Virus record (IMG/VR): IMGVR_UViG_3300031787_013450 | Coordinates: 28,491 to 92,490 of that record | Length of the DNA: 64,000 nt | From: a virus | Reading direction: 5' to 3' (one strand) | Program-made: the position numbers and the translations under genes | Notes under the pieces: model-generated | Databases searched by the model: none | What the model saw: the letters and a program-made list of their open reading frames with translations, nothing else | What the model was told of the DNA's origin: nothing | Shown: in pieces, positions 14,786-60,037 of the stretch | Numbering within the stretch: the first letter of the stretch is position 1 | Layout: every line of letters starts with the position of its first letter

Positions 14786-15502
14786 ATGGAAAATTTAGTA
14801 GACACTGGTATGCATGAAGAATTCAAATCTTATGCAACAAAACACATGGGCATAAGCAGTATGCAACTATATTATTGGGAAAAACTGCAAGAAAACATTT
14901 ATTCAAATGTAAATGTATTTGGTTCTTTATCACCGATGATTTTGGAAGAAAGAGAATTCAGAGCAACACTAATGTCAGTGTTTGATAGAATGATGATGGA
15001 TAGGATTATATGGTTAGCTGGACCAGTTAACGATAGGATGAGCACGGTTGTTCAAGCACAATTAATGTTTCTTGATAATATGGAAACAAAAGATATTACT
15101 CTACATATTGATACACCTGGTGGTAGCGTTAAAAGTGGTTTATCAATTGTTGATGTTATTGGTTATATATCTTCTGATATCGTCACTATAAACACAGGTA
15201 TGGCCGCTAGTATGGGTAGTGTATTATTAGGTGCTGGAACCAAAGGTAAAAGGTATAGTTTAAGTTTCAGTAGAGTTATGCTACACCAAGTTTCTTCTTC
15301 AATGGGGGGTACTATTCAAGACATGCGATTAACAATTGCTGAAACTGAGAAATATAATGAAATATTATTTGGGTTGCTTGGTGAGTACACAAACAAAACT
15401 GCAAAACAAGTTATGAAAGATGCTGACAGGGACCTTTGGTTGAATGCTGATGAAGCACTTAAATATGGTATTATTGATTCGGTAATAAGTAGAAAAAAAT
15501 AA
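14786..15502 (+). CDS. clpP: ClpP-like serine protease subunit
   Basis: 238 residues. Catalytic triad visible: Ser142 in GMAASMGSV, His167 in MLHQVSSS, Asp216 in DADRDLWL, with oxyanion strand DTPGGSVKSG. ClpP forms a 14-mer barrel that degrades proteins fed by ClpX or ClpA; no Clp ATPase is in the window, so it must use the host's or alter host ClpP by mixing. The N-terminal ~45 residues exceed the usual propeptide. It lies 600 bases before a tmRNA gene, whose tagged products are classic ClpXP substrates. Confidence 0.93.
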   Translation: MENLVDTGMHEEFKSYATKHMGISSMQLYYWEKLQENIYSNVNVFGSLSPMILEEREFRATLMSVFDRMMMDRIIWLAGPVNDRMSTVVQAQLMFLDNMETKDITLHIDTPGGSVKSGLSIVDVIGYISSDIVTINTGMAASMGSVLLGAGTKGKRYSLSFSRVMLHQVSSSMGGTIQDMRLTIAETEKYNEILFGLLGEYTNKTAKQVMKDADRDLWLNADEALKYGIIDSVISRKK

Positions 15503-15511
15503 TTAATAATA

Positions 15512-16036
15512 ATGGCGACAAGATATTGTAAAACAACTATAAAACATATTGCTGATTACTGGATAAAAAATAGTAATATAAGTGAACTAGAATTAAATTT
15601 CGATTGGGCCGATGCACACACACACTGTTGGAATTGTGGTGATGACAGATTTAGAAAATCACATAAAACCCCTTCATTAGAAAGATGTCATATAGTTCCA
15701 CATAGTTTAGGTGGTAGTGATTCACCTGACAACTATGTTCTTCTATGTAAAGATTGTCATCAAGAAGCACCAAACACAAACAACCCTAATGACATGTGGG
15801 ATTGGATAAAATCAAACTATATGCCGTTTTCTTTTTACGGCACGTACAGCGTTAGAAAAGCGTTAATCATATTTCAAGAAAGGGAGGGTTTTTCATTTAT
15901 AGAAAAAGCATCAACCATAAACAATATTTCTGATGTTATTAAAAATGAATTTAATAATGTTAGTACTCACGGTGCTAAAACAACTATTAGCACATATTAT
16001 TACATGTTTAAAACTATTATTGATAAATACACATAA
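15512..16036 (+). CDS. HNH endonuclease
   Basis: 174 residues. Cys pair CWNCG at ~35, then RCHIVPHSLGGSDSPDNYVL and CKDCHQEAPN, the ββα-metal HNH core with zinc-binding cysteines. No NUMOD repeats, so a free-standing HNH. It lies between clpP and the tmRNA and may be a homing-type gene; a defence or packaging role is possible. Confidence 0.88.
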   Translation: MATRYCKTTIKHIADYWIKNSNISELELNFDWADAHTHCWNCGDDRFRKSHKTPSLERCHIVPHSLGGSDSPDNYVLLCKDCHQEAPNTNNPNDMWDWIKSNYMPFSFYGTYSVRKALIIFQEREGFSFIEKASTINNISDVIKNEFNNVSTHGAKTTISTYYYMFKTIIDKYT

Positions 16037-16052
16037 TATTTATTAAATAATA

Positions 16053-16084
16053 TTTGTTTTTATTTGTATCTTTTAGTATATTTG
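16053..16084 (+). promoter_or_regulatory. Bacteroidota-type promoter for tmRNA
   Basis: TTTG 16053, TATATTTG 16077-16084, 20-base spacing, 19 bases before the tmRNA 5' end. Confidence 0.75.
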
Positions 16085-16103
16085 TAATAATTATTAAAAC
16101 AAT

Positions 16104-16456
16104 GGGGCGATATTAGAATCGACTGGTTATAGTCGTAAGTATTAAGCATGTAGTGTTAGATGGAAACACTTAAATACCCTATCAAAACAAACAAATGGCA
16201 ACGATTTAGTTGTTTCTGAAAATTTCCTTAACGAAGTTACATGTAGCTTCGCTGGAGAGCTTGCGGTAGCCTGATATCGCTGATAGTAATAACTTACTTA
16301 ATTGTAGTATTTTCTACAACATAATGGTAGTCCATTAGTTTCTAATCAGAGAACTTAACAAATTTGATGTATTTTGAATGGTTAGAAAACCATTATAAAC
16401 ATGTAGAAAGGTATTGAAGAATAACCAACACGTTGGTGCAACTCCGACTCGCTCCA
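16104..16456 (+). ncRNA. ssrA: tmRNA (transfer-messenger RNA)
   Basis: 5' end GGGGCGATATTAGAATCGACTGG and 3' end GTTGGTGCAACTCCGAC plus TCGCTCC close the tRNA-like domain: acceptor GGGGCGA (16104) with TCGCTCC (16449) and a T-arm with loop TGCAACT. Discriminator A 16456; CCA is not encoded. The tag frame most likely resumes at GGC 16197 and ends at TGA 16272: GNDLVVSENF... to ...FAGELAVA, 25 residues. It is flanked by its own promoter and a strong terminator. tmRNA rescues stalled ribosomes and tags the product for proteolysis; the partner SmpB is at 59603. Confidence 0.95.
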
Positions 16457-16458
16457 CT

Positions 16459-16492
16459 AAAAACCTTACAATTATTTTGTAAGGTTTTTTTT
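16459..16492 (+). terminator. Rho-independent terminator of tmRNA
   Basis: AAAACCTTACA / TTGTAAGGTTTT stem followed by eight T, 3 bases after the mature tmRNA end. Confidence 0.9.
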
Positions 16493-16500
16493 ATTTCAGC

Positions 16501-16514
16501 ATATTTATAAATAA
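16501..16514 (+). promoter_or_regulatory. Late-type promoter motif
   Basis: ATATTTATAAATAA directly before the small membrane protein at 16525. Confidence 0.5.
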
Positions 16515-16524
16515 ATTAAATATT

Positions 16525-16782
16525 ATGGGAAAGTTCTTTATGTCATTATTATTGGTTGAGAATAAAGTATCAAGTAAGCGTTTTGTGACCTTAATGGCGT
16601 TTATTTTTATGGCTATAGGGTTTATATCAGATTTATTCTTTGAATACACTGTAAACGAGTTTATATATGAATATATGGCTTGGATTGTGTTAGGTGGTTT
16701 AGGGTTTACAGCATCCGAACAATTTTCTAGTAGAAGAACAAAAAAAGATACAACCCAAAATGAAAATATTGAAAACATTTAA
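16525..16782 (+). CDS. Small two-span membrane protein, holin-like
   Basis: 85 residues: charged N-terminus, hydrophobic segments at ~20-39 and ~50-66 (IVLGGLGFTASEQF), charged polar tail. Size, two spans, charged tail and a late-type promoter fit a holin, but many phage membrane proteins look alike. The endolysin is elsewhere (51854). Confidence 0.55.
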   Translation: MGKFFMSLLLVENKVSSKRFVTLMAFIFMAIGFISDLFFEYTVNEFIYEYMAWIVLGGLGFTASEQFSSRRTKKDTTQNENIENI

Positions 16783-16788
16783 AATAAT

Positions 16789-16812
16789 TAAGGGGATTTA
16801 AAATCCCCTTAA
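16789..16812. terminator. Hairpin terminator
   Basis: AAGGGGATTT / AAATCCCCTT stem after the holin-like gene. The T-run is weak, so it could be an RNA-stabilising hairpin. Confidence 0.6.
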
Positions 16813-17592: not shown

Positions 17593-17678
17593 GGTTAGAT
17601 GATGAAATAGGAAAACATGCAAGACTTAAAATCTTGTGGGCAGAAACGCCCTTGTGGGTTCGACCCCCACTCTAACTA
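17593..17678 (+). tRNA. tRNA-Leu (UAA)
   Basis: Acceptor GGTTAGA / TCTAACT, anticodon arm CAAGA-CTTAAAA-TCTTG with anticodon TAA, long variable arm (GGGCAGAAACGCCC) and T-arm GTGGGTTCGACCCCCAC. A canonical type II tRNA reading UUA, the commonest Leu codon in AT-rich DNA. CCA is not encoded. Confidence 0.92.
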
Positions 17679-17679
17679 C

Positions 17680-17947
17680 AATGAGTAAGAGATACTCAGA
17701 GTCTTTAATTCAAGACTTAAACAATGAATAGGGTATTAGACTGGACATCCTAATATCTATAAAGAAGACTATCACATTTTGGTAGAAACTGGTTATAGCT
17801 CTATAAAACGCCAGTCTCTTTGGAATAAAGCTAGGTAACAGAGGCTCCAAGTAGTTTGACTAATTTTAAGAGGGTAAGACCCACAGGTTTATTGAAAGAA
17901 AGAAAACCGATACATCTACTCACCAGTAATCTCAAGGTGGGGTGGAA
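17680..17947 (+). ncRNA. Structured spacer RNA between tRNA genes (unknown class)
   Basis: No plausible gene on either strand in 268 bases, but many strong local helices: GAGTA/TACTC, AGTCTT/AAGACT, GGTATTAG/CTAATATC, CTATCA/TGGTAG and ACTGGTTATA/TATAA-CCAGT. Less AT-rich than phage genes. It may be a stable RNA or several degenerate tRNA-like units. I found no group I intron core. Confidence 0.45.
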
Positions 17948-18047
17948 GTTAGGTGGCGGAATTGGTAGACGCACGCATGGCTCGGCAGTATCGTGAAAAG
18001 AGCCTGTAATTAAGATACTGCGTACAGGTTCGAATCCTGTCCTAACA
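17948..18047 (+). ncRNA. tRNA-like RNA with H-type pseudoknot instead of an anticodon domain
   Basis: Acceptor GTTAGG / CCTAAC, Leu-type D region GGCGGAATTGGTAGACGC, T-arm ACAGGTTCGAATCCTGT. Between D and T arms there is no anticodon arm. Instead GGCTC (17979) pairs with GAGCC (18000) and GCAGTATC (17985) pairs with GATACTGC (18014), interleaved as an H-type pseudoknot with loops G, GTGAAAA and TGTAATTAA. Shares acceptor, D and T sequences with the RNAs at 18180, 39504 and 39858. Function unknown. Confidence 0.75.
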
Positions 18048-18050
18048 ACA

Positions 18051-18176
18051 AAAATAACTAATGACTCTGAAAAGAGCAAGCTGGATTGGGTTGCTAGCAT
18101 TCCCGTTCGAGTCGGGCAAGAATAGAAATATTCAAGTGGGCCAGCTAGGAGAAACGAAGACCTCATTAGTTATTTT
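18051..18176 (+). ncRNA. Structured RNA with 14-bp terminal stem and internal T-arm, possible Y RNA
   Basis: AAAATAACTAATGA (18051-18064) pairs perfectly with TCATTAGTTATTTT (18163-18176). Inside are AGCTGG/CCAGCT, a T-arm-like hairpin CCCG-TTCGAGT-CGGG (18102-18116) and GAATA-GAAA-TATTC. A long stem from free ends and a tRNA-like core closed by a tetraloop is the plan of bacterial YrlA Y RNAs; AACGAAG near the 3' stem is close to but not exactly the Ro-binding consensus. Assignment is tentative. Confidence 0.5.
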
Positions 18177-18179
18177 CTT

Positions 18180-18257
18180 AGTCAGGTGGCGGAATTGGTT
18201 GCCAAGATAGCGGACTCTAAGGAGCGTCTATTACAGGTTCGAATCCTGTCCTGATTA
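18180..18257 (+). ncRNA. Non-canonical tRNA-like RNA, short form
   Basis: Acceptor AGTCAGG / CCTGATT, D-arm GGC-GGAATTGGTT-GCC, T-arm ACAGGTTCGAATCCTGT. The middle can form GATAG / CTATT with a 17-base loop and no variable region. A CTCTAAG heptamer could be read as an amber (CUA) anticodon loop, but its flanks do not pair, so no amino-acid call is made. Confidence 0.6.
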
Positions 18258-18282
18258 CAATTAATTTAAACATAAAAAAAAT

Positions 18283-19950: not shown

Positions 19951-21516
19951 ATGAAAAACTATATTAAATTCAAATTAAGAAACTTATTAAACGAAACGGA
20001 ATTTAATTACCATAAAGGTGATATAGAAAATGTAGAAAATATAAGACCATATGGTTCAGATAATTTATTTCGTATGCAAGGTCGTGGAACTGGGCATTTT
20101 GGTTCTGGTCTTTATTTTTCTACTTATAGTTGTGAAAATTTTGATGATTCCGATAACTCAAAAAAAGAATTAACTAAAATAAAAGATAATATTTATCGTG
20201 TTGATTTTGATATTTATAAAAATTTATTTAGGGTTAAATCACCAGACCATGCTGAAATGTTATTTAAAACATTAAAACTAATAAATGAAAGTTTTTATTT
20301 AGTTGTTAGAGTTTATGATAGCAAATTTGAAATGGATAACAAATTCAAAATTATTTATTTAAAAATAATAAATAATGCACAATACCTAGGTTTAAATATT
20401 CCAAAATATCGTGAATATATAAATATGGTTAAAGAAGCCGCAAATGACATGAAGAACAAAACCAATTTAGCATCCATGTCAACAAGAATAATGGAGTACA
20501 ATGGTTTTAATGGTGTTAATGTTAGCGGTATAGATGGGTATGATAATACATTACACGGGTCTGTTATATATGATTTATCTAAACTATCGTCTAATCCAGT
20601 AGAAGTTAAAAACCCAGAACTATTTTGTAAAATAAAACGTGATGTGATAACTAATTTCCCAAATATGCGTTCAGATGCTTTAGCTGGTGATAAATTAAGT
20701 ATTGATTTTTTTAATAAATTAAAAAATAATGAAAAAATAATTTATATAAAAAATTTTGAATATTATTTTGAACCTTATCAATTAGATGAGTTAGATGAAA
20801 ACTTAAAAAAAGTTTATTATAATTCATTACCAATTAAATTTAAGAATGGTTTATTAGAAAAATTACCACATTATAAAATGGTTAAAAAAATGATTGATGA
20901 TGGTTATATTAAATTAATTTATGATGAAAACATTAAAGTAAATGATGTAACTATATTAGAAGATATTTTAGAAGATTTTTGGAAGTATGATGAAAAACAT
21001 CAAGAATTGATTTTAAAAAACATAAATAGACCATTAAATGATGAAGAAGAACGTTTATTAAATAACGTGAAAGAAGATGATGAATATAAACAATTTTTTA
21101 CCGAAAACGAAAATAAATTAAATACTTCATCTGAAATAAGAATTAAATATGATATTAACTTACCAAAGGACATAATAGATATTAAAGATATTTTTGTTAA
21201 GAATGGTTATGATTTATATCTTGTTGGTGGTTCAGTAAGGGATGTTTTACTAAATAAAGAACCAAAAGATTATGATTTAGCAACAAATGCTAAACCAGAT
21301 GATATTGAAAACATATTACAAGAAAACGGTTATAAAACAATAGCAACAGGAAAAGCATTTGGTGTCATTAATGTTATAACAGATAGTGATGAATATGAAA
21401 TAGCCACATTCAGAATAGACCAATATAAAGGTTATGATTTAGAAGGGTTTAAAGATTATTTAAAACGTTTAAATAATGGTAGTTACGAAAAATTTTTAAC
21501 TAAATTAATGAAATAG
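19951..21516 (+). CDS. ADP-ribosyltransferase-like domain fused to N-terminal half of a CCA-adding enzyme
   Basis: 521 residues. 1-14 is a targeting-type leader (IKFKLRNLLNE). Residues ~20-220 look like an ADP-ribosyltransferase fold (GRGTGHFGSGLYFST). Residues 422-490 are the nucleotidyltransferase head of a tRNA CCA-adding/poly(A) polymerase: GGSVRD at 426, catalytic DYDLAT at 440, then YEIATFRID. The match to the enzyme breaks off there, and 30 unrelated-looking residues end the protein. The rest of the enzyme resumes at 22274, after a GIY-YIG gene. The two products may assemble into one enzyme. Confidence 0.8.
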   Translation: MKNYIKFKLRNLLNETEFNYHKGDIENVENIRPYGSDNLFRMQGRGTGHFGSGLYFSTYSCENFDDSDNSKKELTKIKDNIYRVDFDIYKNLFRVKSPDHAEMLFKTLKLINESFYLVVRVYDSKFEMDNKFKIIYLKIINNAQYLGLNIPKYREYINMVKEAANDMKNKTNLASMSTRIMEYNGFNGVNVSGIDGYDNTLHGSVIYDLSKLSSNPVEVKNPELFCKIKRDVITNFPNMRSDALAGDKLSIDFFNKLKNNEKIIYIKNFEYYFEPYQLDELDENLKKVYYNSLPIKFKNGLLEKLPHYKMVKKMIDDGYIKLIYDENIKVNDVTILEDILEDFWKYDEKHQELILKNINRPLNDEEERLLNNVKEDDEYKQFFTENENKLNTSSEIRIKYDINLPKDIIDIKDIFVKNGYDLYLVGGSVRDVLLNKEPKDYDLATNAKPDDIENILQENGYKTIATGKAFGVINVITDSDEYEIATFRIDQYKGYDLEGFKDYLKRLNNGSYEKFLTKLMK

Positions 21517-21537
21517 CGACTTTTAGATTAATCCATG

Positions 21538-21550
21538 ATATTTATAATAA
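21538..21550 (+). promoter_or_regulatory. Late-type promoter motif before homing endonuclease
   Basis: ATATTTATAATAA, 11 bases before the GIY-YIG start; it gives the inserted gene its own expression. Confidence 0.45.
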
Positions 21551-21560
21551 AAAGAATGTC

Positions 21561-22268
21561 ATGGAATCAAAATATTATGTCTATGTTTACCTAGACCCAA
21601 GAAAAAAAGGTGAATTTACATATGGTGATTATAAATTTGAATATGAACCATTTTATGTTGGAAAGGGATGTTACAAAAGATGCTTAGAACACTTAAACCC
21701 TAATAGGATGAAGTGTGATAATAACACATATAAAATTAGAAAAATTAATAAAATAATAAATATTGGTTTAAAACCAATAATTTTAAAAATTAGTGAAAAT
21801 ATATTTGAAGTTGATGCTTTCGAGTTAGAAAAAAAATTAATATTAGTTATTGGTAGGAATGATTTAAAAAATGGTCCATTAACCAACCTTACCAATGGAG
21901 GCGATGGTGTTTCTGGTCACATAAGGTCGTTAGAGTATAGGAATAAAATCAGTCAAAACAATAAAAATAGGGAGGTTAGTAATATAACAAGAGAAAAAAT
22001 AAGTCAATCATTAATTGGTAAACCTGGTAGAAATACTGGTAATAAACACAGCGAAGAGACTAAAAAACAAATATCAGAAACCAAAAAAGGTACTTTGTCT
22101 TGGAACGCAACACCAGTATTACAATTATCTAAAGATAGTGAATTAATTAAAGAATGGGTTAGTGCAACAGCAGCAGCAAAAGAATTAGGGTTGAGTCAAG
22201 GCAATATTTGGTCGGTAATAAATGGTAATAGAAATAAGTGTGGTGGTTATAAATGGAAATTAAAATAA
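21561..22268 (+). CDS. GIY-YIG homing endonuclease
   Basis: 235 residues. GIY-YIG-type core YYVYVYLDPR ... FYVGKGCYKRCLEHL, NUMOD3-like DNA-binding repeats (SQSLIGKPGRNTGNKHSEET) and a C-terminal NUMOD1-like HTH (EWVSATAAAKELGLSQGNIW). It sits exactly in the gap between the two halves of the CCA-adding enzyme. The 45- and 5-base flanks leave no room for a group I intron core, so it is a free-standing invader that split the gene. Confidence 0.9.
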   Translation: MESKYYVYVYLDPRKKGEFTYGDYKFEYEPFYVGKGCYKRCLEHLNPNRMKCDNNTYKIRKINKIINIGLKPIILKISENIFEVDAFELEKKLILVIGRNDLKNGPLTNLTNGGDGVSGHIRSLEYRNKISQNNKNREVSNITREKISQSLIGKPGRNTGNKHSEETKKQISETKKGTLSWNATPVLQLSKDSELIKEWVSATAAAKELGLSQGNIWSVINGNRNKCGGYKWKLK

Positions 22269-22273
22269 TTAAA

Positions 22274-23167
22274 ATGGAAAATTGGGAACAAATAGCTAAA
22301 GAATTCTTTAAAAAAGAATTTGAAGATTATGAAAAAACTTTAGCTGATAAAAGAAGACCAGATTCAGTCGAATTCACAGATATATATCAAGATGTGCTAA
22401 GAAGAGATATAACAATAAATGCTTTATTTTACGATATTAAAAATAAAGAAATTGTTGACCTTGTTGGTGGTATTGAAGATATAAAAAATGGTGTGATTAG
22501 AACCGTTGGTAAACCAGAAGATAGATTCAATGAAGATAGACTTAGGATTTTAAGAGTTCTAAGATTCTCAGCCAGATTAGATAGTGATATAGACCAACAA
22601 ACAGATGAAGCATTACAAAAAGATGCTAGTTTAGAAGGTATATCTGCTGAGAGAGTAAAAGATGAATTTATTAAAGGAATTAAATCAGCTAAAAATGTTT
22701 CTTTCTTTCTATCTTTAATAGATAGATATAATTTATTTGATTGGATTTTTCCTAAACTTAATATTAATAAGAATTTCAAAAACTTAACAGATGATTATAT
22801 CATAACAATATCAACTTTATTAAAATTAAATAACCCTAAAAACATTGGTAACAAATTAAATGAATTAAGATACACTATTGATGAGATAAGAAACATTCAA
22901 TTTTTACTTAGTTTTTTAAATATAAGTATTGATACAGCCGTAGCATTAAAAAAGATGCAAAAAAATATAACATTGAATGATGAACAAATAAAAAAATTCG
23001 GTCAAATAAATAATTTAGATAAAAAGTTAGTTGATGCTTTTATAGATTTTGAATTGTCTGTTAATTCACAAGAAGTAATGGATAAATTTAATCTTAAACC
23101 TAGTCAAGAACTTGGTAATAAAATAACATCGTTAGAAACAGATAACTTTAAAAAAACAATTAAATAA
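22274..23167 (+). CDS. C-terminal part of a CCA-adding enzyme (split gene)
   Basis: 297 residues from ATG 22274; an in-frame ATG 21 bases earlier overlaps the GIY-YIG gene. After ~25 residues of extension the enzyme resumes at DKRRPDSVEF, then RRDITINALFYDI, VDLVGGIEDI, and the nucleotide-binding EDRLRILRVLRFSARL, followed by a helical body. It lacks the catalytic DYD motif, which is in the 19951 product. Either the halves associate, or the gene is dead; the conserved motifs in both favour function. Confidence 0.85.
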   Translation: MENWEQIAKEFFKKEFEDYEKTLADKRRPDSVEFTDIYQDVLRRDITINALFYDIKNKEIVDLVGGIEDIKNGVIRTVGKPEDRFNEDRLRILRVLRFSARLDSDIDQQTDEALQKDASLEGISAERVKDEFIKGIKSAKNVSFFLSLIDRYNLFDWIFPKLNINKNFKNLTDDYIITISTLLKLNNPKNIGNKLNELRYTIDEIRNIQFLLSFLNISIDTAVALKKMQKNITLNDEQIKKFGQINNLDKKLVDAFIDFELSVNSQEVMDKFNLKPSQELGNKITSLETDNFKKTIK

Positions 23168-31504: not shown

Positions 31505-32431
31505 ATGAAAATAAGAAATATATTAGAACAATTGAACGGAACAAATATAATAAATGTTCCAATAACCAGAGATAATCAAGAATTGATTATAATGGTTGGT
31601 ATACCTGGTAGCGGTAAAAGCACAAAAGCTAAATCTATAGTTGGTAATGGTATTATCCATTCAACAGATGATTTAATTGAAGCTACTGGTGATTATAACG
31701 AATTCTTTAATAATATGATGGCAAATAAAGATTTTGGACCATTAAGTAATATGCATAAACAAAATCTTAAAAACGCTATAAAATCTATGAAAGATGGTAT
31801 TACACCAGTTATAATTGATAATACCAATTTAAGCCCAAGTGAACCAAAACAATATGTTATGGCTGCATTAGAAATGGGTTACGATGATAAGAACATAAAA
31901 TTTATTAATATCGGTACTGGTGGATTAACAGCAGAAGAATTGGCCAAAAGAAATACACATAATGTGCCTTTAGATAAGATTAAATCAATGATTGATAAAT
32001 ATAAGACACATAACCCAATAACAATTGAAAAAGTGATTAATAGCAAAGATATGGGTAAAAAAGATGATGTGTTATATTCAGCAGTTGTATTGGATGAAGA
32101 ATCACATAATAAATTGATTAATATGTTTTCAGATATCATACCTGAAGATTGGAAAGTTTATGCACATCATATGACAATTCAATTTGGAAAAGGTGTTGAG
32201 AATGAAAAAGATTTGGATAAAGAAGTGATATTACAAGGTAATAAATTAGGTATATCAGATAAAGCAATTGCCATAGAAGTAAGTGGATATGAATCAAAAA
32301 AAAATATACCACATATAACTATAGCTATTAGTCCAGATGGTTCACCTAAAATGAGTAATGATATAACTGATTGGGAAAAAATTAAACCAATTAAATTAAC
32401 TGGCGTGGTTAAAAACATTTTGAAAAAATAA
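31505..32431 (+). CDS. Polynucleotide kinase fused to 2H phosphoesterase
   Basis: 308 residues. Residues 25-190: P-loop kinase, GIPGSGKST at 32-40, TDDLIEATGDYNEFFN and VIIDNTNLSPSE as in T4 Pnkp-type 5' kinases. Residues 195-308: 2H phosphoesterase with HMT at 222 and HIT at 270, the paired HxT motifs of cyclic phosphodiesterases. Kinase plus CPD is the middle and end of fungal Trl1 tRNA ligase; the ligase part is the separate gene at 32782. Together they could heal 2',3'-cyclic-phosphate/5'-OH RNA breaks. The N-terminus IRNILEQLNG is a weak leader match. Confidence 0.85.
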   Translation: MKIRNILEQLNGTNIINVPITRDNQELIIMVGIPGSGKSTKAKSIVGNGIIHSTDDLIEATGDYNEFFNNMMANKDFGPLSNMHKQNLKNAIKSMKDGITPVIIDNTNLSPSEPKQYVMAALEMGYDDKNIKFINIGTGGLTAEELAKRNTHNVPLDKIKSMIDKYKTHNPITIEKVINSKDMGKKDDVLYSAVVLDEESHNKLINMFSDIIPEDWKVYAHHMTIQFGKGVENEKDLDKEVILQGNKLGISDKAIAIEVSGYESKKNIPHITIAISPDGSPKMSNDITDWEKIKPIKLTGVVKNILKK

Positions 32432-32432
32432 T

Positions 32433-32465
32433 TTTGTATTATTAATAAAATTATTAGTACCTTTG
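32433..32465 (+). promoter_or_regulatory. Bacteroidota-type promoter
   Basis: TTTG 32433 and TACCTTTG 32458-32465, 21-base spacing. Confidence 0.7.
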
Positions 32466-32469
32466 TAGT

Positions 32470-32775
32470 ATGGAAAATAATATGTTAGAACGTAGAGCCG
32501 AAATAAGCTCAAAATTATTTGAAATGGGAACTTCTTTATGTAAAGAAAGCCATGAAACTGGTGATTATTGTGTTAATAAAGCTGGTAGTTTATTAATATT
32601 TATCGCTGGTGTTATGTTAGATGAAAAAGATGTCGAAGAATATGGGTTAATTTCATCAATGTATGCTGCAAAAAGGATTATGGATGACCTTGAAGAAAAA
32701 AACATAAGAATTTCAGAGATACTAAAATATTTTAATAATTTAGATGGCGAAGAACAAAACTTTAAAGATAATTAA
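32470..32775 (+). CDS. Hypothetical small protein in RNA-repair operon
   Basis: 101 residues, helical (ERRAEISSKLFEMGTSLCKE). It starts 5 bases after the promoter box, so the transcript may be nearly leaderless; ATG 32482 is an alternative. Six bases before the RNA ligase. Function unknown. Confidence 0.55.
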   Translation: MENNMLERRAEISSKLFEMGTSLCKESHETGDYCVNKAGSLLIFIAGVMLDEKDVEEYGLISSMYAAKRIMDDLEEKNIRISEILKYFNNLDGEEQNFKDN

Positions 32776-32781
32776 AATAAA

Positions 32782-33906
32782 ATGTTAAAAATAGTTGAAA
32801 AGTTAAATAGAGATGGGTTAGAAAAAACCGTATCTGATTTAGAGTTAAAACATAAGTTATACTATGATAAAGTCATATTAAAGTATGACCAATTATCATC
32901 ACCAGTAATAATGGCTTTGGAAGAAGTTCAAGAATGTCGTGGATTAATTCTCGAATTAGACACATGGAAAGTTATTGGTATGGCTTTTAAAAAATTCTTT
33001 AATCATAGTGAAACTAATGCTCATACAATTAATTGGAATACCGCAAGAATCCTTGAGAAGTGTGATGGTTCTTTAATTAATTTACACTACGATTGGAATA
33101 AAGATAAGTGGTTTGCTGCAACAACAGGAACTGCTGAAGGTGAAGGGAATGTTAATGGAATGTTAGATTTAACATTTAATCAACTGTTTTGGAATACAGC
33201 TTCAAAATATGGTTTAACTGAAAATAAATTAACAAAAGGTTTTAGTTATGTTTTTGAATTAATGACACCTTATAATATTGTTGTTAAACCACATTCTGAA
33301 TCTTCACTAACATTATTAACAATAAGGGATTTAAAGACCTTAAACGAATTATCTTACAATGATGTAATGGAAGTATCAAAACAAATAAATATCCCTGTGG
33401 TGACTGAATATGACCTAAATAAGAACATAGATTCTTTGGTTAAGACTTTTGAAAATATGCCATTTTCAGAAGAGGGGTATGTTATTGTTGATAATGATTT
33501 TAACAGAGTTAAATTAAAGAATCCTGAATATGTTTTGGTTCACCATTTAAAAGATAAATTATCTTTTTATAATATATTGGGGATAATAAAGAATAATGAA
33601 GTTGAAGAATTCATATCAACATTCAAAGAACGTGAAAATGAGATACTTGAACTAAGAGAAAAGTATTATGGGTTAATACGTGCGTTAAATCATTATTGGT
33701 ATGTTTTATATGAATTTAAACCTAAGAACAACACAAAAGAAGAACGTAAAAATTACGCCACAAATGTATTTAAAGTTTGTTCAGAGAATAATTTAATGTT
33801 ATTTTCAAATATGTTTTTCTCTTTGATTGACGGTAAAACACCATCACCAGAAGAATACCTTAAAGACTTTGATAACAAGAGGTTATACGAACATTTAAAA
33901 AAATGA
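32782..33906 (+). CDS. T4 Rnl1-type RNA ligase
   Basis: 374 residues. N-terminal ECRGLILELD and AFKKFFNHSE as in T4 RNA ligase 1, nucleotidyl motif I EKCDGSLI with Lys93, motif III SYVFELMTP, motif IV EEGYVIVD and motif V RVKLKNPEY. Size equals T4 Rnl1 (374). The family reseals tRNA cut in the anticodon loop by host anticodon nucleases such as PrrC. It would act with the kinase-phosphoesterase upstream. Confidence 0.93.
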   Translation: MLKIVEKLNRDGLEKTVSDLELKHKLYYDKVILKYDQLSSPVIMALEEVQECRGLILELDTWKVIGMAFKKFFNHSETNAHTINWNTARILEKCDGSLINLHYDWNKDKWFAATTGTAEGEGNVNGMLDLTFNQLFWNTASKYGLTENKLTKGFSYVFELMTPYNIVVKPHSESSLTLLTIRDLKTLNELSYNDVMEVSKQINIPVVTEYDLNKNIDSLVKTFENMPFSEEGYVIVDNDFNRVKLKNPEYVLVHHLKDKLSFYNILGIIKNNEVEEFISTFKERENEILELREKYYGLIRALNHYWYVLYEFKPKNNTKEERKNYATNVFKVCSENNLMLFSNMFFSLIDGKTPSPEEYLKDFDNKRLYEHLKK

Positions 33907-34148
33907 AAACTATAAAAGAACTTAGAAATATTGGTCTAAAAGTTGAAGAAGCTTGCTCAAGCGTAAAGTACTTTAAACAATTAAATATTGATTGGGATGT
34001 TTTCTTAGAAACAAGAGGTAAGAACTTACAGCGTGATTTTGTTTGGGATTTAAATCAAAAACGTGAATTAATATGGTCTGTGTTGATTGGTAGACATATT
34101 CCACATATGGCTTTAATAAACACTATAGATGAACTACCCATTGGCTAA
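33903..34148 (+). pseudogene. DUF262-like N-terminal fragment cut by a TnpB element
   Basis: 81 residues: LQRDFVWDLNQKRELIWSVL and GRHIPHMALIN are the QR-x-FVW and G-x-IP signatures of DUF262/GmrS-type ParB-like domains. The reading ends in the right-end hairpin of the TnpB element. A plausible continuation (QYKRDFPNENFWIEEINIS, stop at 35559) lies just beyond the other end. The DGQQR-type core is missing, so even the restored gene would be short. Confidence 0.6.
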
Positions 34149-34159
34149 AGACCAATGGG
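34137..34159. repeat. TnpB element right-end hairpin
   Basis: CCCATTGG / CCAATGGG around CTAAAGA; on the minus strand the loop is TCTTTAG, identical to the loop of the hairpin at the other end (35471-35487). tnpB stops inside it. Typical IS200/IS605 end structure. Confidence 0.75.
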
Positions 34160-35344: not shown

Positions 35345-35470
35345 TATTTATCAGATTAACTCTATATATGATAAATATATGATAATATTAAAAAAGACAT
35401 ATTTTAAGAAAAAAAAATATTTATTTGTTTATTTGTTTATTTATTTGTATTTTTGTAGTGCTTATATCAC

Positions 35471-35487
35471 ATAAGCTAAAGACTTAT
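35471..35487. repeat. TnpB element left-end hairpin
   Basis: ATAAG / CTTAT around CTAAAGA with GGGTTTTA following; matches the right-end hairpin in loop and flank. Confidence 0.7.
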
Positions 35488-35586
35488 GGGTTTTACGCAT
35501 TCAATATAAAAGAGATTTTCCAAATGAAAATTTTTGGATAGAAGAAATAAATATATCTTAATTTTAATCCTATAATAAAAAAAATA

Positions 35587-35618
35587 TTTGCACATTAAAA
35601 AACTTTTTAGTAACTTTG
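35587..35618 (+). promoter_or_regulatory. Bacteroidota-type promoter
   Basis: TTTG 35587 and TAACTTTG 35611-35618, 20-base spacing, for the second RNA ligase. Confidence 0.75.
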
Positions 35619-35634
35619 TAAAAAAAAAAGAAAT

Positions 35635-50991: not shown

Positions 50992-51214
50992 TGATAATAA
51001 CCAAAAACATGGTTATTGGGAATGGTATTATGATAATGGAGCCATAATGTATAAAGGTTATTTTTTTAATGATAAACCTCATGGATATTGGGAATCTTAT
51101 TATAGTAATGGTGCAATAATGTATAAAGGTAAATATTTTAATGGTAAACCATATGGTTATTGGGAGAGGTTTGAATATTTTGGTAAATTAAAATCTAAAA
51201 CATATTACATATGA
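50978..51214 (+). CDS. MORN-repeat protein 1
   Basis: 78 residues with three MORN-like units (HGYWEWYYDNGAIMYKGYF, HGYWESYYSNGAIMYKGKY, YGYWERF). Such repeats bind phospholipids or proteins. Confidence 0.75.
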   Translation: MNQYNDNNQKHGYWEWYYDNGAIMYKGYFFNDKPHGYWESYYSNGAIMYKGKYFNGKPYGYWERFEYFGKLKSKTYYI

Positions 51215-51372
51215 ATTTAAAAAATATAACACCAATAAATGAAAATAATCAACCACATGGTTATTGGGAACACTATTTTTCTAATGGTCAATTATATTAT
51301 AAAGGAAACTATGTTAATGGTAACAGACATGGTTATTGGGAATACTATTGGGGTAATGGTAAATTAAAATAA
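51211..51372 (+). CDS. MORN-repeat protein 2
   Basis: 53 residues, ATG 51211 overlapping the previous stop; two MORN units (HGYWEHYFSNGQLYYKGNY, HGYWEYYWGNGKLK). It is probably a tandem duplicate or split of the preceding gene. Confidence 0.7.
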   Translation: MNLKNITPINENNQPHGYWEHYFSNGQLYYKGNYVNGNRHGYWEYYWGNGKLK

Positions 51373-51386
51373 AAAAGATATTATAT

Positions 51387-51869
51387 ATGGTGTTAAACAA
51401 AATAAATGAATTTGCGAAAAAAGAATTATTAATTGATGTTAATCTTAATAGTAATGATACTTATATTGATTTAGAAAATAAAATAATTTTAATACACAAC
51501 AAACAAACAATAAATAATAAATGTTTTTCATTATTACATGAATTGGGGCATGTTATTCAACCAGTTAGTTTATTTCAAATAGAAAAAAAAAATATAAATG
51601 TCAGTAAGTTTTTAATATTAGAACAGGAAATAAATGCTTGGGATATTGGTTGGTTAATTGCAAAATATTTAAAAATAGCCGACAAATTAAATTATGAAGA
51701 TTATGTTAAAGAATCTGCAATTAATTTAAAATCATATATGATAATGATTAATGAAGCAGATAACAAATACATAAAAACAAAAGCGATAGATTATATTATT
51801 AAAGAAAACGAAAGATTACCAGAATGGTTAGACGTATATAAAAAAGTAATCAATCAAAGATTAACATAA
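51387..51869 (+). CDS. Zincin metallopeptidase-like protein (ImmA/IrrE-like)
   Basis: 160 residues. SLLHELGHVIQP carries HExxH at ~50, and LEQEINAWDIGWLIAK supplies the downstream Glu, as in ImmA/IrrE peptidases that cleave repressors. No HTH domain is attached. Its end overlaps the convergent endolysin by 16 bases. Confidence 0.75.
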   Translation: MVLNKINEFAKKELLIDVNLNSNDTYIDLENKIILIHNKQTINNKCFSLLHELGHVIQPVSLFQIEKKNINVSKFLILEQEINAWDIGWLIAKYLKIADKLNYEDYVKESAINLKSYMIMINEADNKYIKTKAIDYIIKENERLPEWLDVYKKVINQRLT

Positions 51870-57047: not shown

Positions 57048-57254
57048 ATGGAATTAAACATAAAAGATGATATTTCAATAGATAAGATTGAACAATTTAT
57101 TAACACATCGGTTAATAATAAACTTAAAAGAGTTTATATTAATGGTGTAAACCAAGAAATATTAGATGAATTAATATTTTTAGTTAATAAAAAAGGTTAT
57201 ACGATATCTAAAAATTTATTTAATAGTGATAATTATATTATTGAATTGAAATAA
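57048..57254 (+). CDS. Hypothetical small protein
   Basis: 68 residues, between the A1-like gene and infC, overlapping infC by one base (TAATG). Alpha/beta, unknown. Confidence 0.55.
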   Translation: MELNIKDDISIDKIEQFINTSVNNKLKRVYINGVNQEILDELIFLVNKKGYTISKNLFNSDNYIIELK

Positions 57255-57751
57255 TGAAAAACAAAGAAAAAAAACATTTAATTAATGAAGAAATAAAAGT
57301 TTCTCAAGTAAGATTACCAGAAATTGGTGTTATATCATTAACTGAGGCTCTATCTTTGGCTAATACCCAAAATATGGACTTAGTTCTTTTTAACATTGAT
57401 AACAATGATAATATTGGTTTTTGTAAATTACTTAAATATGAAAAATTTTTATATGAACAAAATAAAAACAATAAACCTAAAAAAATAGATTTAAAAGAAA
57501 TAAAAATAGGTCCGAATATTTCTGAAAATGATTTAAATTACCGTATAAATCATATTATTGATTTTATAAATAAAGGTCATAAAGTTAAAATAACTATGGA
57601 ATTTAGGGGTAGAGAAATGAATTACATAGATAACGCAAAAACATTGTTTCTTAATCTATTGGTTAAATTAGAAAATGTATCAACAGCAGAATTTATGCCA
57701 AAATTAGATGGTAAAAAAATGTTTACGATAATAAGACCTAAAACAAAATAG
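57254..57751 (+). CDS. infC: Translation initiation factor IF-3
   Basis: 165 residues, close to bacterial IF-3 length (~175-180). Starts LINEEIKVSQVRL, then GVISLTEALSLANTQNMDLV, CKLLKYEKFLYEQNK, LKEIKIGPNISENDL, HKVKITMEFRGREMNY and an AEFMPKLDGKKMFTIIRPK tail: both domains and the linker are present. IF-3 discriminates start codons and keeps 30S free. A phage copy could bias host 30S toward phage mRNAs with A-rich leaders. Confidence 0.95.
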   Translation: MKNKEKKHLINEEIKVSQVRLPEIGVISLTEALSLANTQNMDLVLFNIDNNDNIGFCKLLKYEKFLYEQNKNNKPKKIDLKEIKIGPNISENDLNYRINHIIDFINKGHKVKITMEFRGREMNYIDNAKTLFLNLLVKLENVSTAEFMPKLDGKKMFTIIRPKTK

Positions 57752-57779: not shown

Positions 57780-57803
57780 TAAGCTTAAATTTAGATAAAA
57801 AAA

Positions 57804-58325
57804 ATGAAGAAAGTAGAAAATATAAAAAAGATTGCTGTTTTTGATTTTGACCAAACCATTGCGTATACTCCATTACCTGAAGATGGTAAAATTGAGTATA
57901 AAAACAAAACTGGTAAAGATTGGCCACATAGTGGTTGGTGGGGTCGAAAAGAATCACTTGACGATGAAATATTTGATATTGATGTTAACAAAAAAGTCGT
58001 GGATGATTACAAAGAGAACTATGGTAATGATAAAATATTGGTAGTGTTGCTGACTGGTAGGATTAAAAAGTTGTCTGGTGATGTTGAAAAGATTCTGGAT
58101 AAACATGATTTACATTTTGATGAATATTACTATAATGATGGTGGTAGTACAGATAAATTTAAATTAAGTATTTTGGATAAGTTAATTAAGAAATACGAAA
58201 ATGTTGAGTATGTTGAGATGTGGGATGACAGGCTTGAACACATTCCTAAGTTTGAGGCTTGGGGGAAAGAAAACATTATCAATGGTAATATAAAAGATTT
58301 TAATATAAATGTTATTTTAAGTTGA
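57804..58325 (+). CDS. HAD phosphatase, possibly Swiss-army-knife RNA-repair type
   Basis: 173 residues. HAD motif I AVFDFDQTIAYTPLP, then HSGWWGRKESLD, motif II VVLLTGRI, a Lys/helix region and motif IV YVEMWDDRLEHI. The TPLP...GWW insert resembles the HAD domain found in Swiss-army-knife RNA-repair proteins. It would be a phosphatase acting on RNA ends; the RNA-repair enzymes at 31.5-37 kb make that attractive. By-eye assignment. Confidence 0.7.
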   Translation: MKKVENIKKIAVFDFDQTIAYTPLPEDGKIEYKNKTGKDWPHSGWWGRKESLDDEIFDIDVNKKVVDDYKENYGNDKILVVLLTGRIKKLSGDVEKILDKHDLHFDEYYYNDGGSTDKFKLSILDKLIKKYENVEYVEMWDDRLEHIPKFEAWGKENIINGNIKDFNINVILS

Positions 58326-58645
58326 AAGAAAAGGGTAGAAAGATATTAACAAATAAAATAAAGTTATTTGATGCCATAACATCACCAATAGAATTAATTA
58401 AGGAAACTCTTATTAATTTTCTTTGGGGGTTTTTTGGTAATTCGATAGTTGTTTTTATTAGCAAAAACAATGATTTAGCGGTATTCATAAATTTTTTTGT
58501 ATATTATATGTTTATATCATATATTGTTAATAGAAATAAATATGAAACAATGTTTGGTAAACTTATTGTTTTACCTGGTTCAGCCACATTAGGTGCTTTT
58601 TGTGGATACAAGTTAGCACAATACATATCAATTTATGTTTTATAA
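58322..58645 (+). CDS. Membrane protein with TTG start
   Basis: 107 residues; start TTG 58322 overlaps the previous TGA and no ATG fits before the first hydrophobic segment. Three spans (~34-50, ~55-72, ~88-105), LINFLWGFFGNSIVVFI and GSATLGAFCGYKLAQYI. Unknown; export or lysis role possible. Confidence 0.55.
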   Translation: MKEKGRKILTNKIKLFDAITSPIELIKETLINFLWGFFGNSIVVFISKNNDLAVFINFFVYYMFISYIVNRNKYETMFGKLIVLPGSATLGAFCGYKLAQYISIYVL

Positions 58646-58878
58646 TGTTATCGTTTTACTTTAATCTTTTTATAATATTATTTTTATCATATATAATATC
58701 AGAGGTATTAAAGATATTTACAAATTTACTACCATTAAGTGTTAAAAACAGATTATTTTTTTTATATATGAAAATTTTTGATGATATAACTATTTTAGAT
58801 GTTATATCGTTTATGACAGGGTTATTAATTATTTTACTTAATTTTAAAATAATTTTACCACATAACAGTAATTTTTAG
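58645..58878 (+). CDS. Two-span membrane protein
   Basis: 77 residues from ATG 58645, sharing one base with the previous stop. Spans ~3-22 and ~48-70. Probably acts with the preceding membrane protein. Confidence 0.5.
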   Translation: MLSFYFNLFIILFLSYIISEVLKIFTNLLPLSVKNRLFFLYMKIFDDITILDVISFMTGLLIILLNFKIILPHNSNF

Positions 58879-58889
58879 GATTTTATTAG

Positions 58890-58897
58890 TATATTTG
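58890..58897 (+). promoter_or_regulatory. Bacteroidota-type promoter (-7 box)
   Basis: TATATTTG, 4 bases before the start at 58902; the -33 part is degenerate. Confidence 0.5.
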
Positions 58898-58901
58898 TAT
58901 T

Positions 58902-59606
58902 ATGAAAATAGTTGTAATTGGTGATTTGCATGGCAGAGGTGTATGGTTGGATATTGTAAAAAAAGAATCCGCAGATAAATATGTATTTATTGGTGATTAT
59001 TTTGATTCTTTTAATATTCCATATGAGCATCAAGATGCTAACTTTAAAGATTTAATTAAATTTAAAGAAGAGAATGAAGATAAGGTTATTTTATTGATAG
59101 GTAATCACGATTTCCATTATATGAAAAACATATACGAAAAATATAGTGGTTATCAACACATATATAGATATAGGATAGAAGAAATGTTAGATAAGGCATT
59201 TAACAAAAACTATCTTAATATCTGTTATAAATATAATGATTTTGTCTTCAGTCATGCTGGTATCACAAAAACTTGGTATGAAACATTTATAAAAAAATAT
59301 GGGGTTAATTTAGAAAAAATAGAAGAAGATTTGAATGATTATTTAAAATATAAACCAAATGTTTATAATTTTAATATTGGTAAAAATAATTCATATTATG
59401 GTGATGATGTAACACAATCTCCATTATGGGTTAGACCAAATTCACTATCAATAGATAGTATTGATGGTGTCAAACAAGTTGTTGGACACACAGCAGTTAA
59501 TGGTATTAGAATTGAAAATAATTTAATATTAATTGATTGTCTTGATTACAAGAATGAGTATTTAATAATTGATGGTGATGAAGTAAAAATAAAAGAAATA
59601 AAATGA
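58902..59606 (+). CDS. PPP-type metallophosphoesterase
   Basis: 234 residues: IGDLHGRGVW, IGDYFDSFN, IGNHDFHYM, FSHAGITKTW and VVGHTAVNG are the five motifs of lambda-phosphatase-like serine/threonine or nucleotide phosphatases. Start 4 bases after the promoter box. Overlaps smpB by 4 bases. It could counter host kinase signalling or cleave Ap4A; undetermined. Confidence 0.88.
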   Translation: MKIVVIGDLHGRGVWLDIVKKESADKYVFIGDYFDSFNIPYEHQDANFKDLIKFKEENEDKVILLIGNHDFHYMKNIYEKYSGYQHIYRYRIEEMLDKAFNKNYLNICYKYNDFVFSHAGITKTWYETFIKKYGVNLEKIEEDLNDYLKYKPNVYNFNIGKNNSYYGDDVTQSPLWVRPNSLSIDSIDGVKQVVGHTAVNGIRIENNLILIDCLDYKNEYLIIDGDEVKIKEIK

Positions 59607-60037
59607 AAACGATAACTAAAAATAGAAAAGCGTTTTTCGATTATAATGTACTTGATACTTATATTACAGGGATTAAGTTATTAGGTTCTGAAGTTAAATC
59701 AATAAGGATTAATGGGTTAAATATAAGTGATTCTTATTGTTTTATAAGCGATAATGAAATCTTTATTAAGGGTATGAATATACCACAATTAAAGACGAGT
59801 ATTTATGATAATCATGAACCAACGAGAGTTAGAAAACTATTATTGAAGAAAAAAGAAATTAATAAAATTTCAATATCAACTTCCACAGATAAATTAAGTA
59901 TAATACCATTGGAAATAATTTTAAGTGAAAGTAATTTCATAAAAGTTAAGATTGGTATATGTCGTGGTAAAAAGGCGTATGATAAGTCTAAAGCGATAAA
60001 AGAGAGAGATATTAAGAGAGAGATTAAAAATTTGTAA
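59603..60037 (+). CDS. smpB: SmpB, tmRNA-binding protein
   Basis: 144 residues: NRKAFFDYNVLDTYITGIKL, LGSEVKSIRINGLNISDSYC, the HEPTRVRKLLLKKKEI motif and GICRGKKAYDKSKAIKERD ending in a basic tail KREIKNL. These are the OB-fold core and decoding-centre tail of SmpB, at normal length (~150). SmpB loads tmRNA onto stalled ribosomes. The phage's own tmRNA is at 16104, so both RNA and protein halves are phage-encoded. Confidence 0.95.
   Translation: MKTITKNRKAFFDYNVLDTYITGIKLLGSEVKSIRINGLNISDSYCFISDNEIFIKGMNIPQLKTSIYDNHEPTRVRKLLLKKKEINKISISTSTDKLSIIPLEIILSESNFIKVKIGICRGKKAYDKSKAIKERDIKREIKNL

What the first reader, a model, noticed from the sequence alone, without database searches (positions are those of the whole stretch)
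14786..60037. Phage-encoded trans-translation kit: tmRNA, SmpB and ClpP, plus IF-3
Seen: a complete tmRNA (16104-16456), a full-length SmpB (59603-60037), ClpP with its triad (14786-15502) and IF-3 (57254-57751). Known: tmRNA and SmpB act as a pair, and tagged proteins go to ClpXP. Phage tmRNAs are known, but having both tmRNA and SmpB, with ClpP, in one phage looks rare. Inference: the phage keeps ribosomes moving after host mRNA is cut or when host rescue factors are attacked, and may steer tagged proteins to its own ClpP.
Basis: partly seen in the sequence, partly recalled or inferred. Interest (0 to 1): 0.9.

Follow-up and report, generated by a model that had tools for sequence, protein, structure and literature searches.

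The report
Phage tmRNA with its own tag
A large virus of bacteria carries its own version of the machinery that rescues stuck ribosomes (tmRNA, SmpB and the ClpP protease), and its tmRNA belongs to a viral family that writes a long peptide tag unlike the short tags read in likely host bacteria, which suggests a separate protein-tagging channel during infection.

Summary
tmRNA 16104-16459 reaches the Rfam cut-off (48.5 against 47 bits). SmpB has the SmpB fold (21 of 21 PDB fold matches at E<=0.001 are SmpB). ClpP has its triad; IF-3 has both domains.

"Rare" is not supported: published huge phages carry the same parts (LR756504 all four), and Al-Shayeb 2020 reported phage tmRNA and SmpB.

Not seen in the papers searched: among the 80 best ClpP loci kept from IMG/VR (one is the window's virus), 72 hold a tmRNA on the clpP strand, 70 of them within 2 kb downstream. 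70 of those 72 encode one 25-27-aa tag family (window: GNDLVVSENFLNEVTCSFAGELAVA); the 30 Bacteroidota tmRNAs read encode 9-10 aa. Codon-position variation shows selection on the peptide. ARAGORN finds 33 of the 72.

Best reading: functional phage trans-translation with a recoded tag, perhaps feeding a ClpP of Bacteroidota type that lacks a neighbouring clpX and is altered at pore/docking residues. Rescue is likely; the tag-to-ClpP link is a hypothesis. Adjacency lies inside a wider collinear block, and SmpB was found on only 6 of the 79 other ClpP records, many of them short.

The parts
14786..15502 (+). ClpP (S14 peptidase), 238 aa, triad S142/H167/D216, Bacteroidota-type N-terminal extension
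   Evidence: PF00574 185.5 bits; PDB ClpP chains, best E 2.3e-43; the three residues are invariant in 45 rows; similar N-terminal extension in two tig-clpP-clpX operons
15512..16036 (+). HNH endonuclease lying between clpP and ssrA
   Evidence: PF01844. In 25 of the 72 loci with a tmRNA the gap from the end of the clpP match to the tmRNA is under 170 nt, so it may be an insertion
16053..16084 (+). Bacteroidota-type promoter-like sequence TTTG-N20-TATATTTG before the tmRNA
   Evidence: 14 matches in the window against 1.04 expected. In 52 distinct 120-nt stretches upstream of the tmRNA of the clpP loci, TAnnTTTG occurs in 44 (shuffles 6.4) and the full two-part pattern in only 6 (shuffles 0.3)
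16104..16459 (+). tmRNA (ssrA)
   Evidence: RF00023 48.5 bits; acceptor and T-arm pairs vary together among relatives
16153..16169 (+). PK1 stem 1, GTGTT/AACAC
   Evidence: 30-row alignment: one pair is U-A in the window and C-G in the other 29; two other rows break the last pair
16197..16274 (+). Tag reading frame GNDLVVSENFLNEVTCSFAGELAVA plus TGA stop
   Evidence: same 25-27-aa tag family in 70 of 72 clpP-linked tmRNAs; third codon positions vary twice as much as first and second
16459..16489 (+). Intrinsic terminator-like hairpin
   Evidence: 13-pair stem followed by a T run; -14.1 kcal/mol, z -6.15
59603..60037 (+). SmpB, 144 aa
   Evidence: PF01668 163.7 bits; model pLDDT 89.7; 21 of 21 PDB fold matches at E<=0.001 are SmpB
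57254..57751 (+). IF-3, both domains; connection to the rest unknown
   Evidence: PF05198 and PF00707
19951..23167 (+). tRNA nucleotidyltransferase (possibly CCA-adding) in two pieces with a homing endonuclease at 21561-22268; could finish the CCA end that the tmRNA gene lacks
   Evidence: phrog_2244 matches in 19951-21516 and 22253-23167; relatives in 18 of 79 clpP loci

Best explanation
A lineage of large phages, probably of Bacteroidota hosts, runs its own trans-translation. The phage tmRNA is transcribed from its own promoter, ends at a terminator, is charged with alanine (G3-U70), is finished to CCA by a nucleotidyltransferase of phage or host, and enters stalled ribosomes with phage (or host) SmpB. 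There it appends not a 9-10-aa tag of Bacteroidota type but a conserved 25-26-aa phage tag. The recoded tag changes the fate of the tagged proteins: most likely degradation in which the phage's ClpP, a Bacteroidota-type ClpP without a clpX beside it, has a part. Shown here: the parts, their conservation, adjacency, and selection on the tag peptide. Inferred: transcription, charging, rescue, partnership with the phage SmpB. Hypothesis: delivery of tagged protein to phage ClpP. My step estimates: working rescue RNA 0.85; phage SmpB is its partner 0.75; tagged proteins go chiefly to phage ClpP 0.35.
For: RF00023 match. Records retrieved by ClpP alone hold a tmRNA over the cut-off in 39 of 40 plus 29 of 39. 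72 of 80 loci have it on the same strand, 70 within 2 kb downstream of clpP. Tag family in 70 of 72, lengths 25-27, 51 distinct DNA sequences; Glu8, Asn9 and Glu21 invariant in the 34 distinct 25-aa ones. Third-position variation 0.338 against 0.169 and 0.166, phase ratio 2.02 against a maximum of 1.55 in 44 overlapping control windows. Compensatory acceptor and T-arm changes; G3-U70 in 23 of 24 distinct acceptor stems, though the script that placed the stems favoured GGG and TCC ends. Tags of 9-10 aa in 30 of 30 Bacteroidota tmRNAs read. ClpP and SmpB together in six other records, with a tmRNA over the cut-off in five of them. SmpB fold confirmed.
Against: The clpP-ssrA adjacency lies in a wider collinear block: five other window neighbours recur in 62 to 71 of 79 loci, so common descent of a phage lineage may explain it. 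SmpB was found in only 7 of 80 ClpP records, one of them the window's own virus; many records are short, but 2 of the 5 over 300 kb also lack it. Only 27 of 79 SmpB records have a tmRNA over the cut-off, and one of these (L250) has a 9-aa bacterial-type tag. The window's T loop is aberrant. A pattern scan saw no ClpX in the stretches held, so an unfoldase must come from the host, lie elsewhere, or be unnecessary. In Lak phages and LR756504 clpP and ssrA lie about 11 kb or more apart, and Lak tags are short.
Confidence: 0.6

Rival explanations
1. Ordinary reinforcement: the phage tmRNA and SmpB simply add rescue capacity, tagged proteins are degraded by host ClpXP, and the long tag and the phage ClpP are unconnected. 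ClpP serves phage proteolysis of its own, for example of head proteins, or is aimed at host proteins as proposed for jumbo-phage ClpP (PMC7824862, passage).
For: Both RNA and protein look functional. The best PHROG match of ClpP is named head maturation protease. Adjacency is part of a general collinear block. Tags still end in small hydrophobic residues (AVA 26, ALA 8, AFA 7 of 51 distinct), which ClpX may read.
Against: The tag is conserved at 25-27 aa with invariant inner residues, more than a plain ClpX degron should need. No capsid gene was recognised among the window proteins scanned.
Confidence: 0.25
2. Decoy: the phage RNA or SmpB titrates host factors and blocks host trans-translation, as reported for molecules like the tRNA-like-domain-only RNA of mycobacteriophage DS6A.
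For: A DS6A-type molecule inhibits tmRNA (PMC4131195 and PMC11915505, passages). The window's T loop departs from that of its relatives.
Against: A decoy needs no reading frame; here the frame is open and under selection. G3-U70, PK1 stem 1 and acceptor pairing are kept.
Confidence: 0.08
3. Passive cargo: host-derived genes carried without benefit.
For: ClpP resembles Bacteroidota ClpP, extension included.
Against: Conservation at 61-76% ClpP identity across the 79 other loci kept, substitutions fixed in 45 of 45 rows, selection on the tag.
Confidence: 0.04

Closest known systems
Bacterial trans-translation (one-piece tmRNA RF00023 with SmpB)
   Same: acceptor stem with G3-U70, PK1, resume codon, open tag frame, SmpB fold
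   Different: tag of 25-27 aa instead of the 9-10 aa read in Bacteroidota; C terminus mostly AVA/ALA/AFA rather than LAA/MAA; ssrA sits beside clpP
tmRNA and SmpB of huge phages (Al-Shayeb et al. 2020, PMC7162821)
   Same: phage-encoded tmRNA, SmpB and IF-3; LR756504.1 has all four parts and a resembling 24-aa tag
   Different: the main text holds no mention of ClpP, and the passages read say nothing of tag sequence; their tmRNAs were called with ARAGORN, which finds 33 of the 72 tmRNAs here
Clp proteins of jumbo phages (PMC7824862; Agrobacterium phage Atu_ph07, PMC6102473; Sinorhizobium phage AP-J-162, PMC11242549)
   Same: phage ClpP in some jumbo phages; AP-J-162 has a tmRNA and has clpX next to IF-3
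   Different: the passages read connect none of these with tmRNA tagging; Atu_ph07 encodes ClpX and ClpA too, and no tmRNA
Phage tmRNAs of mycobacteriophages, Bacillus phage G and Melnitz (PMC4131195, PMC9004378)
   Same: ssrA in a phage
   Different: the passages read describe no phage SmpB or ClpP with them; Melnitz is two-piece
Bacteroidota ClpP
   Same: N-terminal extension and catalytic core
   Different: no clpX beside it; lineage substitutions W76, T87, H107, D109, N136 (two bacterial sequences compared)

Membership tests
tmRNA (RF00023) | covariance-model score over the gathering cut-off | tested here: met
   48.5 against 47 bits
tmRNA (RF00023) | alanine identity pair G3-U70 in a 7-bp acceptor stem | tested here: met
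   sequence; 23 of 24 distinct acceptor stems of the lineage, with placement favouring GGG/TCC ends
tmRNA (RF00023) | tag reading frame with stop | tested here: met
   codon-phase test
tmRNA (RF00023) | canonical T loop | tested here: not met
   TGCAACT in the window; TTCGA or TTCAA in 28 of 30 rows. A deviation of this copy (and of L182), not of the lineage
tmRNA (RF00023) | PK2-PK4 | tested here: inconclusive
   low posterior probabilities and broken pairs in that part of the alignment
tmRNA (RF00023) | aminoacylation and tagging on the ribosome | not testable with these tools
   needs bench work
SmpB (PF01668) | family score and SmpB fold | tested here: met
   163.7 bits; 21 of 21 Foldseek matches at E<=0.001 are SmpB
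SmpB (PF01668) | C-terminal tail with GKK..DK motif | tested here: met
   GKKAYDKS; the Arg after DK in the consensus of relatives is Ser here
ClpP (S14, PF00574) | Ser-His-Asp triad and fold | tested here: met
   model pLDDT 80.9 with a low-confidence stretch 42-62
ClpP (S14, PF00574) | works with an AAA+ unfoldase | not testable with these tools
   a pattern scan saw no ClpX in the stretches held
IF-3 | IF3_N and IF3_C domains | tested here: met
Bacteroidota-type ssrA tag | 9-10-aa tag ending in LAA or MAA | tested here: not met
   25-aa tag ending in AVA

The most novel reading that the evidence does not exclude
A private tag-and-protease channel: the phage recodes trans-translation so that proteins made on stalled ribosomes during infection carry a 25-26-aa phage degron that the host's ClpXP reads poorly, and a phage ClpP whose gate and docking network has been rebuilt reads or degrades it without ClpX or with another unfoldase. 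The positions matching S. aureus ClpP M31, N42, Y63 and N65 are W, T, H and D in the window (His in 40 of 45 rows at the third, the rest Tyr). Y63A is a known constitutively active mutant, more active still with N42A; His is not Ala, so this is a lead only.
Probability: 0.25. Interest if true: 0.9.

Novelty: new variant of a known kind. Interest (0 to 1): 0.72.

Why it matters
Why phages carry tmRNA is open. A conserved phage-specific tag shows that the message part of the molecule, not only ribosome release, is under selection in these phages, and it makes the question testable with one reporter: who degrades a protein that carries this tag? If the tag is private, phages have rewired a near-universal bacterial quality-control pathway. 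Surveys based on ARAGORN may have missed about half of this class (39 of 72 here).

Tried and rejected
Considered and dropped: (1) A novel N-terminal domain of phage ClpP. The AlphaFold2 model shows two helices before the core, but two bacterial tig-clpP-clpX operons carry a similar extension, so it is probably inherited from Bacteroidota. (2) INPHARED matches taken at face value. Of 66 records matching SmpB, 17 were opened (16, LR745206): the Staphylococcus one holds smpB beside ribonuclease R and other host genes; four UNVERIFIED faecal scaffolds carry strong tmRNAs (136-158 bits) with 9-10-aa tags and are probably bacterial; five others had no tmRNA and were left undecided. Two UNVERIFIED scaffolds matching ClpP carry tig-clpP-clpX. 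None of these was used as a phage example. (3) The tag motif elsewhere in the phage proteome: KKLSENFLNYLY in ORF 219-2660 and a few weaker ones, judged chance. (4) Looking for the tag in named phages, plasmids and 296 Bacteroidota genomes gave nothing. A 25-aa tblastn is weak, the tool warns that an empty answer shows nothing, and this is not used as evidence. (5) A single origin of phage SmpB: the tree does not support it (IMG/VR phage rows need 8 changes; shuffled mean 13.2, none of 500 as low), so only clustering is claimed. (6) A covariance model of the phage tmRNAs was not tried (about 360 positions, likely beyond the time limit); a sequence profile of 13 phage tmRNAs, two of them from the clpP set, was used. 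(7) RF00023 matches below the cut-off were not counted as tmRNA, because archaeal controls also ring at E<=0.001.
Full report
WHAT IS THERE. The window is bases 28491-92490 of a 92,490-bp IMG/VR virus record. A second record of 115,661 bp agrees at 100% in the stretches compared (about 36 kb of the overlap) and continues 25 kb to the right. G+C is 26.6%. Phage-type genes include a homologue of the T5 A1-type DNA transfer protein (best listed matches in Flavobacterium phages, 43.8%), three sigma factors, primase, SbcCD-type subunits and a Dda-like helicase. No terminase or capsid gene was recognised among 60 proteins scanned with PHROGs, so the record may be part of a larger genome.

THE FOUR PARTS. 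tmRNA 16104-16459 scores 48.5 bits against a cut-off of 47 over the whole model, but ARAGORN misses it. SmpB 59603-60037 scores 163.7 bits; its AlphaFold2 model (pLDDT 89.7) matches SmpB in 21 of 21 PDB fold matches at E<=0.001. ClpP 14786-15502 scores 185.5 bits and matches solved ClpP chains. IF-3 57254-57751 has both domains.

ANATOMY OF THE tmRNA. From the sequence: acceptor GGGGCGA/TCGCTCC with G3-U70; PK1 stem 1 GTGTT/AACAC; an A-rich spacer; then GGC AAC GAT ... GCC TGA, encoding GNDLVVSENFLNEVTCSFAGELAVA. Upstream lies TTTG-N20-TATATTTG, the promoter type known from Bacteroidota (recalled). TTTG-N20-TAnnTTTG occurs 14 times in the window against 1.04 expected. In relatives TAnnTTTG stands upstream in 44 of 52 distinct stretches but the full pattern in only 6. 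A terminator-like hairpin follows directly. The gene encodes ACTA, not ACCA, at its 3' end; the phage carries a tRNA nucleotidyltransferase nearby, in two pieces, which could finish it. The T loop TGCAACT is unusual.

RELATIVES. A scan of IMG/VR with the window ClpP confirmed 578 places; the best 80 were kept, one being the window's own virus. Among the 79 other records RF00023 is over its cut-off in 39 of 40 and 29 of 39. A sequence profile places a tmRNA in 72 of the 80 loci, in each on the strand of clpP, 70 of them within 2 kb downstream. Of the 8 without, 2 hold under 2 kb downstream of clpP and 6 hold 5.9-8 kb without a match. The set is redundant: 56 distinct tmRNAs among 72.

THE TAG. 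70 of 72 tmRNAs fit one tag pattern, which I wrote after seeing the tags: 51 distinct DNA sequences, 47 distinct peptides, lengths 25 (34), 26 (16) and 27 (1). Among the 34 distinct 25-aa tags Glu8, Asn9 and Glu21 are invariant. The common form is DNDFIVSENFL(D/N)EA....GE(L/V)AVA. The two exceptions (L185, L199) have the tmRNA 6 kb away and a 9-aa tag GNAEYAMAA. LR756504, a 636-kb phage, has a resembling 24-aa tag; the two Lak phages read have 10-aa tags (start by analogy). For a control, 198 Bacteroidota genomes were searched (188 over the cut-off) and the 30 best-scoring tmRNAs were read: all 30 have 9-10 aa (29, the thirtieth). These are the most canonical ones, a bias. The peptide is under selection: in the 30-row alignment mean pairwise difference is 0.169, 0.166 and 0.338 at codon positions 1, 2 and 3, ratio 2.02, while the largest phase ratio of 44 overlapping windows outside the tag is 1.55. 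Among tmRNAs of records found through SmpB, tags are also long, 18-34 aa as I read them, with one 9-aa exception (L250).

HOW COMMON IS THE PAIR WITH SmpB. A scan with a phage SmpB alignment kept 80 of 182 loci, one being the window's virus. RF00023 is over the cut-off in 5 of 40 and 22 of 39 of the other records; one of these 27 is L250. Conversely SmpB was found in 7 of 80 ClpP records, one being the window's virus; five of the other six have a tmRNA over the cut-off, and the sixth scores 44.4. Of the five ClpP records over 300 kb, three have SmpB. In a second group smpB and ssrA are convergent neighbours: in ten records that I worked out by hand from the tables (G042, G050, G051, G052, G053, G055, G056, G057, G061, G063; chosen from the 22, the rest not worked out) the gap is about 0.5-2.2 kb. 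Named phages: LR756504 has SmpB, ClpP, IF-3 and a 65.2-bit tmRNA; Lak-A1 and Lak-B5 have SmpB, ClpP and tmRNAs of 54 and 48 bits. LR745206 has SmpB and ClpP but no tmRNA over the cut-off; LR756501 and LR756502 have SmpB and no tmRNA over the cut-off.

ClpP. Two Bacteroidales-type tig-clpP-clpX operons have a similar N-terminal extension, so the phage gene probably derives from such a ClpP, without clpX. A pattern scan saw no ClpX in the stretches held. In 45 aligned rows W76, D109 and N136 are invariant, T87 is at least 90%, and position 107 is His in 40 and Tyr in 5; the two bacterial sequences have Phe, Asn, Cys, Asn and Tyr at 76, 109, 136, 87 and 107. Through the alignment to 1y7o positions 76, 87, 107 and 109 match M31, N42, Y63 and N65 of S. 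aureus ClpP (numbering recalled). Passages of PMC9035409 say that Y63A is constitutively active and that Y63A with N42A is more active; a passage of PMC6853987 puts Y63 in the centre of the hydrophobic site. This suggests, but does not show, altered docking or gating.

HOW IT WORKS. Stalled ribosome, then tmRNA with SmpB, then addition of alanine and the tag, then release, is established biology for a working tmRNA-SmpB pair. The special point is the tag. A tag this long and this conserved should have a reader of its own. The adjacent ClpP is the best candidate, but the adjacency lies in a collinear block in which five other neighbours are about as well kept (62 to 71 of 79), so it is weak evidence of functional coupling.

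PRIOR WORK. PMC7162821 (passages) reports tmRNA, SmpB and IF3 in huge phages and says its tmRNAs were called with ARAGORN. ARAGORN finds 33 of 72 tmRNAs here, several with a wrong tag start, and 29 of 30 of the Bacteroidota set. PMC7824862 (passage) notes ClpP in some jumbo phages as possibly deployed against the host; PMC6102473 (passages) lists ClpX, ClpA, ClpP and ClpS in Atu_ph07; PMC11242549 (passages) reports a tmRNA, and clpX beside IF-3, in phage AP-J-162; PMC12363816 and PMC13037316 (one passage each) mention Clp protease or clpP among frequent jumbo-phage genes. In none of the first, fourth and fifth of these five do tmRNA, SmpB or ssrA occur, nor in PMC6102473. PMC9004378 (passages) counts ssrA in 402 of 18,146 phages. 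PMC4131195 and PMC11915505 (passages) list phage tmRNAs and the DS6A form; the latter gives 10 aa as the most frequent tag length. [quoted passage not shown] Six searches of the open-access library (capped listings read) showed me no paper on a phage clpP-ssrA pair or on this tag. Subscription papers are not held, and supplements were not read.

VERDICT. The rarity claim is wrong. The functional reading is plausible and now better founded. The new element, as far as searched, is a phage tmRNA family with its own long tag.

Noticed in passing
window 17593-18260: tRNA-Leu followed by a further tRNA-like match (17947-18048, 32.5 bits) and, by eye, another tRNA-like stretch at about 18183-18257, in a phage that encodes a protein of the phrog_850 RNA-binding family (8087-9517); a Ro/Y-RNA-like arrangement is possible (recalled).
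   Followed up: no
window 19951-23167: tRNA nucleotidyltransferase split by a homing endonuclease gene (21561-22268): intein, intron or true split.
   Followed up: no
window, 14 places: TTTG-N20-TAnnTTTG promoter-like matches, 14 against 1.04 expected, 11 on the + strand; points to a Bacteroidota host.
   Followed up: partly
L046 and L047 (G001 88000-115661); one copy at window 51007-51389: The region beyond the right end of the window holds many repeats, up to about 1.2 kb long and about 82% alike.
   Followed up: no
window 31505-36906 and 57804-58325: RNA repair-like set: polynucleotide-kinase-type ATPase, two RNA ligases, HAD-family protein; a transposase lies at 34145-35344 (-).
   Followed up: no
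L033 1272-1844 (phage LR756501, 735 kb): A weak tmRNA match (21.1 bits) abuts a group I intron (96.1 bits): possibly an intron-bearing phage tmRNA.
   Followed up: no
L054 1501-2945 (phage LR745206): GOLLD RNA (RF02032, 287 bits) near a tRNA gene and a partial tmRNA-like match.
   Followed up: no
clpP loci, just upstream of the tmRNA: A conserved leader like GTTCTTTAATTTAT directly before the mature 5' end in most of the 25 rows printed, absent in the window.
   Followed up: no
many of L251-L274 (IMG/VR): A second phage tmRNA group with smpB and ssrA as convergent neighbours and the tag GNVLNKMALVGLVRQDELVNVA or similar.
   Followed up: partly
INPHARED MT839408.1, MT836411.1: UNVERIFIED 'Bacteriophage sp.' faecal scaffolds that carry tig-clpP-clpX: bacterial sequence in a phage collection.
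   Followed up: yes
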